Shown here piece by piece: positions 11,982-35,555 of a stretch of 43,604 bases of DNA. Source of the stretch: Candidatus Kerfeldbacteria bacterium. Lineage in GTDB: Bacteria > Patescibacteriota > Patescibacteriia > JACPL01. Both the position numbers and the translations under genes were made by a program. Every line of letters starts with the position of its first letter. Position 1 is the first letter of the stretch. Where the stretch lies: contig JACPGL010000008.1 of the NCBI GenBank assembly GCA_016182525.1, positions 1 through 43,604 on the forward strand, given 5' to 3'. The notes beneath the pieces were generated by a model, which was not told where the DNA came from, searched no databases, and was given only the letters and a program-made list of their open reading frames with translations.

Positions 11982-12273
11982 CTCCTTTCATTGTATCATT
12001 TCAGGAGGCGCAGTCAAGAGATCCGCTTCAGTCACCGCGAGAGGCGCTGCTTCGGGCCGCGTCGACCGACCCCACCGGGTCGGTCGCGCTTTGCCTCGCG
12101 CTCGCTCGTCCCGCACTGTCATCCGTCGACTGACGTGTGTCATCCTGAGTCCGCCAACGGCGGACGAAGGATCTCGTGCGGGACACCGTGGCCGCTCGCT
12201 GCTCTCGGGATCCCTTCGCAGCATCCTCTTCTGGTGACCTTGCCGATACACGCGTCATAACCTGAACATTTTA

Positions 12274-16941: not shown

Positions 16942-17106
16942 GTGGGAAGGATGGACACATGTTTCTAAGCGGCATATCCCGCAGGCAATTTCGGCTTGGT
17001 CCGAAGCTCGAAGAGCTGAGGCGAAATTGCCGAGGGAAAAGAACGATCGGCTGCTGGAGCCGATCGATTCTGGTGCCGCGTGAAACATGTGTCCAGCCGC
17101 TCCCAC
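16942..17106 (+). ncRNA. Structured dispersed element S2, copy A (thrS-miaB intergenic)
   Basis: Outer stem GTGGGA (16942-16947) and TGGACACATGTTTC (16952-16965) pair with GAAACATGTGTCCA (17082-17095) and TCCCAC (17101-17106). The 112-base core (16969-17080) has GCGGCA/TGCCGC, TCCC/GGGA, GGCAATTTC/GAAATTGCC, AGCTC/GAGCT and ATCGGCT/AGCCGAT helices, with fixed loops CTTGGTCCGA, GAGG, AAGAACG and CGATTCTGGTG. A core of the same length at 34583-34694 covaries in every inner helix. I do not recognise the family. Confidence 0.75.
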
Positions 17107-34542: not shown

Positions 34543-34557
34543 GAATGAAAAGGTTAT

Positions 34558-34717
34558 AGGTGAGATTTAGATAGTTTCCGGAGCGGCACGTCCCGCAGGC
34601 GGTTTCAGCTTGGTCCGAGGCCCGGAGGGCCGAGGTGAAACCGCCGAGGGAGAAGAACGCTCGCCCGCTGGAGGCGAGCGATTCTGGTGACGCGAGGAAA
34701 CTATCTAAATCTCACCT
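34558..34717 (+). ncRNA. Structured dispersed element S2, copy B (between dfrA and thyA)
   Basis: A 22-bp perfect outer stem (34558-34579 / 34696-34717) encloses a 112-base core (34583-34694) homologous to 16969-17080. Inner helices GGCGGTTTCA/TGAAACCGCC, GGCCC/GGGCC and CTCGCC/GGCGAG differ from copy A by paired changes, while loops CTTGGTCCGA, GAGG, AAGAACG and CGATTCTGGTG are kept. The RNA-like strand is plus, antisense to dfrA and thyA. The outer stem overlaps the thyA stop codon. Confidence 0.75.
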
Positions 34718-35555
34718 AATACATATTCACCGTAATCTTCATGCCTTTGATGGCGGGGTCGGGGTAGTAGTGGGAGGTGATGCGCTCGGTAATCTCGCGG
34801 ACGAGTTCGACATCTCCTGCGACGGCGCGCTCATAACTATTTTCGGGTAGCACCAACTGAAGTTCGGGATGAGCATTTGTGCGAGTGATTAACTCCTCGG
34901 CTTGCGGAAGATGATTGTCGTACACATGCGCGTGGCTTATCGATTGCGTATACACGCCCGGCCGCACGCCAAGTTTTTGAGCAAAGATCATCGCAAGAAG
35001 TGCAAAGCCAGCGGTATCGTGCGGGCAGCCGAGCATCATGTCGTTGGAGCGAATAATGTTGTGCAAATTCAAACGCCCGCCGATGATATTCACGGTGAAC
35101 GTGTACGGACAGGGCAAATTCTTTTTCATGTCGGGGCCCAACCCATCGCCAGCCGGATCCCACGTGATAATCACTCCGTGCCGTGACATCGGGTTGGCCG
35201 CCAAGTCTTTGAGCATCAAATCAATTTGATCGCGGCCAAAGTGGTGACGCCAACGGTAACCATACGCCGCGGCGATGGTGCCATCCTCCTCGACAAACTC
35301 ATCCCAGATTGGCGTGAACTGCTGCAGCCAGCTCGGCTCATGCGCGCCCATCAAGAACCAAATCTGCTCGGCGACAAACAACTGAATCGGAATTTTGCGC
35401 AGTGTCAACACCGGGAACCCTTTTTCCAAATCCAAACGCAACGTCATGCCCGGCACCGACCGCACCGTGCGCCCAGACCACGGATTCGGTACATCAACTC
35501 CCTCTTCGACAATCGTTCGAATAGCTTGTTGGTACTGTGTATCAAAGTTAGTCAT
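34716..35555 (-). CDS. thyA: Thymidylate synthase homologue with Asp180 (possible dCMP specificity)
   Basis: A 279-residue ThyA-fold enzyme. Conserved: Arg region SGRTVRSVPG, Glu in FVAEQIWFL, AYGYRWR, catalytic Cys149 in LPCPYTF, dUMP-binding RSNDMMLG and the His-Tyr pair in SHAHVYDNH. The residue matching E. coli Asn177 (FNIA), which reads the uracil ring, is Asp180 here (HDTA). In T4 dCMP hydroxymethylase this position is Asp, and Asn-to-Asp in ThyA is known to shift preference to dCMP. The residue after the catalytic Cys is Pro, not His, and the C-terminus (KITVNMY) is not the usual PVAI/V. It may act on dCMP; neighbours Dcd, Tmk and DHFR keep a dTMP role possible. Confidence 0.88.
   Translation of the reverse strand: MTNFDTQYQQAIRTIVEEGVDVPNPWSGRTVRSVPGMTLRLDLEKGFPVLTLRKIPIQLFVAEQIWFLMGAHEPSWLQQFTPIWDEFVEEDGTIAAAYGYRWRHHFGRDQIDLMLKDLAANPMSRHGVIITWDPAGDGLGPDMKKNLPCPYTFTVNIIGGRLNLHNIIRSNDMMLGCPHDTAGFALLAMIFAQKLGVRPGVYTQSISHAHVYDNHLPQAEELITRTNAHPELQLVLPENSYERAVAGDVELVREITERITSHYYPDPAIKGMKITVNMY

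What the first reader, a model, noticed from the sequence alone, without database searches (positions are those of the whole stretch)
16942..17106. Unrecognised structured RNA family S2: two 112-base cores with covariation in every inner helix
Seen: the cores 16969-17080 and 34583-34694 have equal length and identical loops (CTTGGTCCGA, GAGG, AAGAACG, CGATTCTGGTG), while four helices change by paired substitutions (for example GGCAATTTC/GAAATTGCC to GGCGGTTTC/GAAACCGCC, and ATCGGCT/AGCCGAT to CTCGCC/GGCGAG). A U-G to C-G change at the basal stem favours the plus strand as the RNA. The outer stems (14 and 22 bp) are perfect but unrelated in sequence. Conserved loops plus compensated stems are what selection for an RNA fold produces. 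I know no riboswitch, ribozyme or OMEGA-type RNA with these loops. A ribozyme, a regulatory RNA or a mobile RNA element are all open (inference).
Basis: partly seen in the sequence, partly recalled or inferred. Interest (0 to 1): 0.85.

Follow-up and report, generated by a model that had tools for sequence, protein, structure and literature searches.

The report
Patescibacterial mobile three-way-junction hairpin repeats
The two look-alike hairpins in this window belong to a previously uncatalogued family of small gene-less repeats that has spread through the genomes of many tiny Patescibacteria, and whose folded single-stranded shape and loop letters are strictly conserved, which suggests that an unknown partner recognises them and helps them move.

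Summary
Both cores are where stated, share their loops and have compensated stems. They are two of 24 copies in this genome (13 close relatives, 11 in divergent subfamilies). A covariance model finds the family in 30 of 381 genomes of the class and 32 of 380 of the phylum, and essentially not in 12 other genomes. It has no Rfam match. In 110 copies 92% of pair cells are paired, all 45 pairs covary (0/500 shuffles), and the loops CG.AGGC, GCUUGGU, GCCGAG and CCGCNGGAG persist. G·U outnumbers A·C mismatches 96:24 in the core and 48:6 in the arms, so the plus strand is the one that folds. It is not a fixed RNA gene but a dispersed mobile repeat. Copies cluster by genome, sites differ between congeners, the outer arms belong to the insertion, and one subfamily was amplified with another repeat inside its P2 loop. 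There is no reading frame, linked gene, U-tract or visible target-site duplication. HUH-Y1, reverse transcriptase, IS110 and TnpB do not track it. Best reading: a non-autonomous, REP/MITE-like element recognised as a folded single strand (RNA or ssDNA) by an unidentified trans-acting machinery. The mover, and RNA versus ssDNA, remain unproven.

The parts
16942..16965 (+). copy W1: left outer arm
   Evidence: pairs with 17082-17106; sequence and folds
16969..17080 (+). copy W1: core (inner basal stem, P2 and P3 around a three-way junction)
   Evidence: R1/R2 model match 129-152 bits; fold
16977..17036 (+). copy W1: P2 arm with internal loop GCA/GA and variable apical hairpin
   Evidence: consensus structure and covariation
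16994..17000 (+). copy W1: conserved one-sided bulge GCTTGGT
   Evidence: columns 40-46 of A4, G/C/G/G/T at 92-100%
17041..17070 (+). copy W1: P3 hairpin, loop CTGCTGGAG (family CCGCNGGAG)
   Evidence: conservation in A4, covariation of the helix
17082..17106 (+). copy W1: right outer arm
   Evidence: pairs with the left arm
34557..34579 (+). copy W2: left outer arm, 23 bp perfect
   Evidence: sequence and fold
34583..34694 (+). copy W2: core
   Evidence: R1/R2 match 132-152 bits
34696..34718 (+). copy W2: right outer arm; its last three bases are the stop codon of the thymidylate synthase gene on the minus strand
   Evidence: sequence, ORF list, Pfam

Best explanation
A phylum-wide family of small (about 110-185 bases), gene-less mobile elements of Patescibacteria. 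Each copy is a three-way junction (long outer stem P1, P2 with a GCUUGGU bulge, P3 with a CCGCNGGAG loop). Shown: it is dispersed, gained or lost between congeners, amplified within lineages, carried as a unit with its own arms and in one case with an inserted repeat, and the plus strand is constrained to fold. Inferred: a trans-acting protein or RNP recognises the junction and loops on the folded plus strand (RNA or single-stranded DNA) and copies or moves the element, in the manner of REP and MITE elements. Insertions survive mainly right behind stop codons, where harm is least. The outer arms are free in sequence and need only pair.
For: 24 copies in G000. Found in 30/381 class and 32/380 phylum genomes, with only two weak 26-bit hits in 12 non-patescibacterial genomes. 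Covariation 92.1% paired, 45/45 pairs, 1856 double-changed cells, 0/500 shuffles. Loops conserved across the phylum. Nearest relative lies in the same genome for 50 of 68 copies, against 4 expected. Congeners G258/G363: four sites differ, none shared, and at the cleanest site (upstream of a tRNA-Leu gene) the arms are absent from the empty site. Subfamily-B composite with an S1 repeat in the P2 loop present at three sites. G-U to A-C ratio 96:24 and 48:6. 35 right arms against 13 left arms abut a gene 3' end.
Against: No mobilising enzyme identified: HUH-Y1, RT, IS110 and TnpB families do not track the element. No target-site duplication was seen by eye and no flanking motif was found. Conservation of loops over such distances could also reflect a host function. 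Empty-site evidence comes from one genus pair at about 75% DNA identity.
Confidence: 0.62

Rival explanations
1. Mobile RNA: the element is transcribed, the plus-strand RNA folds and is recognised by its loops, and it is spread by reverse transcription in trans (a bacterial SINE-like retroelement).
For: G-U over A-C asymmetry comparable in direction to RNase P in the same genomes (59:6); tandem G-A/A-G replacing Watson-Crick pairs in P2; loop conservation.
Against: No RT (PF00078) match in G000, G381, G411, G540, G661, which carry copies, though some of these assemblies are incomplete. No poly-A tract or target duplication seen. G-U share 3-4%, below the 11% of RNase P.
Confidence: 0.2
2. ssDNA hairpin element moved by an HUH or other ssDNA recombinase, like REP/RAYT or IS200/IS605 derivatives.
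For: Long, nearly perfect Watson-Crick arms, no target duplication seen, folded-strand preference, dispersal downstream of genes.
Against: Y1 transposase (PF01797) present in 14/25 element-positive and 14/25 negative genomes, and missing in copy-rich G258, G363, G097, G381. No REP-style tetranucleotide or flank consensus.
Confidence: 0.25
3. A cis-acting RNA element (3' UTR stabiliser, terminator or antisense RNA) of host genes that has multiplied by duplication.
For: Copies lie right behind stop codons; extremely stable RNA fold.
Against: Orientation to the adjacent gene is mixed and most often the conserved folding strand is antisense to it. No U-tract. No common neighbouring gene family. 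Sites not shared between congeners.
Confidence: 0.12
4. A plain DNA palindrome whose arms stay complementary because replication corrects quasi-palindromes, with no function.
For: Few G-U intermediates against many double changes; arms drift fast.
Against: Unpaired bulges and loops are the most conserved positions, and G-U far exceeds A-C; a strand-symmetric process predicts neither.
Confidence: 0.05

Closest known systems
REP / BIME palindromes and RAYT (Y1 transposase), e.g. PMC3733652
   Same: Intergenic, multi-copy, palindromic, species-specific subfamilies, frequent inverted pairs, no reading frame
   Different: REPs are 20-40 bp simple hairpins with GTAG/CGTC tags; here about 110-185 bases with a three-way junction and conserved internal loops across a phylum, and no co-occurrence with Y1
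Bacterial MITEs and ERIC/RU repeats (PMC10969869, PMC2759123)
   Same: Small non-autonomous repeats of 100-200 bp with inverted-repeat ends
   Different: No target-site duplication seen, arms not conserved in sequence, no parent transposon found, inner loops deeply conserved
Integron attC sites (own knowledge)
   Same: Structure rather than sequence conserved in the stems, location behind stop codons, one folding strand matters
   Different: attC is conserved at its outer R boxes and variable in the middle; this is the reverse
Retron msr-msd RNA (own knowledge)
   Same: Long variable outer stem around a branched inner fold
   Different: No RT beside the copies, and none found in several copy-bearing genomes

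Membership tests
Rfam 15 families | score above gathering threshold of any family | tested here: not met
   No match in the window at gathering, and none over the element with E up to 5; none over the element in 20 loci carrying divergent homologues
REP/RAYT system | Y1 (RAYT) transposase in the genome | tested here: not met
   14/25 positives and 14/25 negatives; absent in G258, G363, G097, G381
REP/RAYT system | 20-40 bp palindrome with GTAG/CGTC tag | tested here: not met
   unit over 110 bases, no flank consensus
MITE | short dispersed non-coding copies with inverted-repeat ends | tested here: met
MITE | target-site duplication and parent transposon sharing the ends | tested here: inconclusive
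   no duplication seen by eye in flanks, no flank consensus, no linked protein family; congeners only about 75% identical
Retron ncRNA | adjacent reverse transcriptase | tested here: not met
   no shared neighbouring gene family; PF00078 not found in G000, G381, G411, G540, G661
IS110 bridge RNA | IS110 recombinase in the genome / next to the RNA | tested here: not met
   PF02371 in 7 of 50 genomes, not tracking the element
OMEGA RNA (TnpB) | TnpB/OrfB gene | tested here: not met
   PF07282 over cut-off in 1 of 50 genomes
Intrinsic terminator | GC-rich stem followed by a U-tract | tested here: not met
   TTTT within 12 nt of the right arm in 7/78, AAAA before the left arm in 8/78
Integron attC | conserved outer R boxes with an integron integrase | not tested
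   only the lack of a conserved outer sequence was seen; no integrase search was made
Expressed ncRNA | discrete transcript | not testable with these tools
   no RNA-seq available

The most novel reading that the evidence does not exclude
A hitherto unknown class of mobile structured RNA: a gene-less, phylum-wide bacterial retroposon-like or RNP-moved element whose conserved three-way-junction core is the recognition or catalytic part, with a dedicated, still unidentified patescibacterial machinery acting in trans.
Probability: 0.2. Interest if true: 0.92.

Novelty: new variant of a known kind. Interest (0 to 1): 0.72.

Why it matters
Structured elements with this strength of covariation and phylum-wide loop conservation normally have a dedicated partner. 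None is known here, and Patescibacteria have small genomes that would not be expected to keep up to 24 useless copies. Identifying the partner could reveal a new mobility system or nucleic-acid-binding protein in one of the least tractable bacterial groups. The covariance model also gives an annotation tool for these genomes.

Tried and rejected
Rfam at gathering and permissive thresholds: nothing over the element. Viral contigs by pattern then model: 13 pattern hits, no model hits. Linked genes by all-against-all comparison of neighbouring ORFs: no shared family beyond housekeeping genes. HUH-Y1, RT, IS110 and TnpB association: none. Intrinsic terminator and target motif: none. Replication-strand bias through local GC skew: 35 against 22 loci, not convincing. 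Pseudoknots: no covariation signal outside the nested structure and its register neighbours. Literature: no description found in the open-access library. A partial P2-only hit (G019:C37, L256) turned out to end in masked sequence, so it is no evidence for a split element. A per-subset MAFFT/RNAalifold comparison against RNase P stopped after the first subset because one random subset gave no pairs, so the element figures are taken from the full model alignment instead.

Full report
OBSERVATION. The two cores are at the stated places and align over 112 bases without gaps, with identical loops. Each folds far better than shuffled sequence (z -10.4 and -12.9). A BLASTN search of the window's own assembly (G000, 1.04 Mb, 63 contigs, 79% complete) finds 13 complete copies and one fragment. 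None of 56 relatives, all known only as members of the same class, matched by BLASTN.

FAMILY. A covariance model R1 from the 13 copies found clear relatives in five other genomes of the class. An exact pattern scan of named genomes followed by R1 found more, in Colwellbacteria, Liptonbacteria, Azambacteria, Brennerbacteria, Yanofskybacteria, Yonathbacteria, Wildermuthbacteria, Gribaldobacteria and unnamed MAGs. A model R2 from 44 copies then matched 30 of 381 genomes of the class and 32 of 380 of the phylum, including other classes. Copy numbers run from 1 to 24 per genome. Counts are lower bounds because only a limited number of candidates per genome was scored in the large screens, and the E-values are rough. 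Twelve non-patescibacterial genomes (about 69 Mb), chosen because they carried the pattern by chance, gave only two weak matches of 26 bits.

STRUCTURE. In 110 aligned copies 92.1% of pair cells form standard pairs, against 55% in shuffles and 36-47% in slid controls. All 45 pairs show double changes (1856 cells), and no measure was reached in 500 shuffles. The alignment was fitted to the model. The RNAalifold prediction on the same alignment, made without the model's structure, recovers the same helices, and 42 of the 70 strongest covarying column pairs are the model's pairs, with no sign of a pseudoknot. The most conserved positions are unpaired or flank loops: CG.AGGC and GCCGAG at the base of P2, the one-sided bulge GCUUGGU, and CCGCNGGAG at the tip of P3. 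In part of the family two lower P2 pairs are replaced by G-A and A-G, as in tandem sheared pairs.

WHICH STRAND, RNA OR DNA. On the plus strand G-U outnumbers A-C mismatches 96:24 in well-paired core positions and 48:6 in the outer arms. The minus strand would see these the other way round, so a folded plus strand is what is kept; the binomial p values treat copies as independent, which they are not. G-U is nevertheless rarer (3-4%) than in RNase P RNA of the same genomes (11%), so part of the perfect pairing may come from DNA-level copying between arms (inference). RNA and single-stranded DNA are both possible.

MOBILE REPEAT. (a) The nearest relative of a copy lies in the same genome in 50 of 68 cases, against 4 expected. 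(b) In the congeners G258 and G363, about 75% identical in DNA, two syntenic blocks carry elements at different spots: four polymorphic sites and none shared. At the cleanest site, a spacer next to a tRNA-Leu gene, the arms are missing from the empty site too. (c) G000 holds at least two further subfamilies. In one, three copies carry the same kind of insert, a GATCCTTCG...CAGGATGAC-type repeat, in the P2 tip, and the composite sits at different places, so the unit was copied with its cargo; some of their surroundings share other short repeats. (d) A decayed fragment exists at C25:16967.

CONTEXT. The window copies lie between threonyl-tRNA synthetase and a MiaB-like radical SAM gene, and between thymidylate synthase and a dihydrofolate-reductase-like gene. 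Over 79 copies, with ORFs called by a simple rule, the right arm abuts a gene's 3' end within 30 nt in 35 cases and the left arm in 13. Thus the conserved strand is most often antisense to the neighbour, and a cis role in its mRNA is unlikely. No gene family is shared by the neighbourhoods beyond scattered housekeeping genes. There is no U-tract and no flank motif.

MACHINERY. Y1 HUH transposase occurs in 14/25 positive and 14/25 negative genomes, and reverse transcriptase in 15/30 and 8/20. IS110 and TnpB are rare in both. No candidate mover was found; incomplete assemblies weaken single absences.

JUDGEMENT. It works like a REP or MITE element with an unusually elaborate, deeply conserved recognition fold. 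It is not a member of the REP/RAYT, retron, IS110 or OMEGA families as tested, nor of any Rfam family. Mobility is well supported. Recognition of the folded strand by a trans-acting partner is inferred from the loop conservation. The route, RNA or ssDNA, is open. The open-access library held no description of it, but subscription papers and preprints were not searchable.

Noticed in passing
window 12139-12173 (minus); also in L248, L253, L255, L011: A second short palindromic repeat, GATCCTTCG...CAGGATGAC, occurs in this genome; it has inserted into the P2 tip of one subfamily of the element and beside or inside the decayed copy on contig C25.
   Followed up: partly
L246, L247, L248, L249, L250, L251, L252, L253, L254, L255: The same genome carries at least two divergent subfamilies of the element with altered bulge (GCCAUGGUG, GCAUGGAUG) and P3 loops.
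   Followed up: partly
L223 1501-1897; L236 5107-5477; L258 about 2362-2635: Copies often occur as inverted pairs about 40-150 bp apart, as in BIMEs.
   Followed up: no
window 34716-34718: The stop codon of the thymidylate synthase gene lies inside the end of the right outer arm of copy W2.
   Followed up: partly
L009, L019, L246, L249 left flanks: A further repeat of about 80 bp, 91-95% identical, lies near several copies in G000; this genome is rich in small repeats.
   Followed up: no
L029, L182: Copies sit directly behind dnaJ in two genomes of different families; probably coincidence.
   Followed up: no
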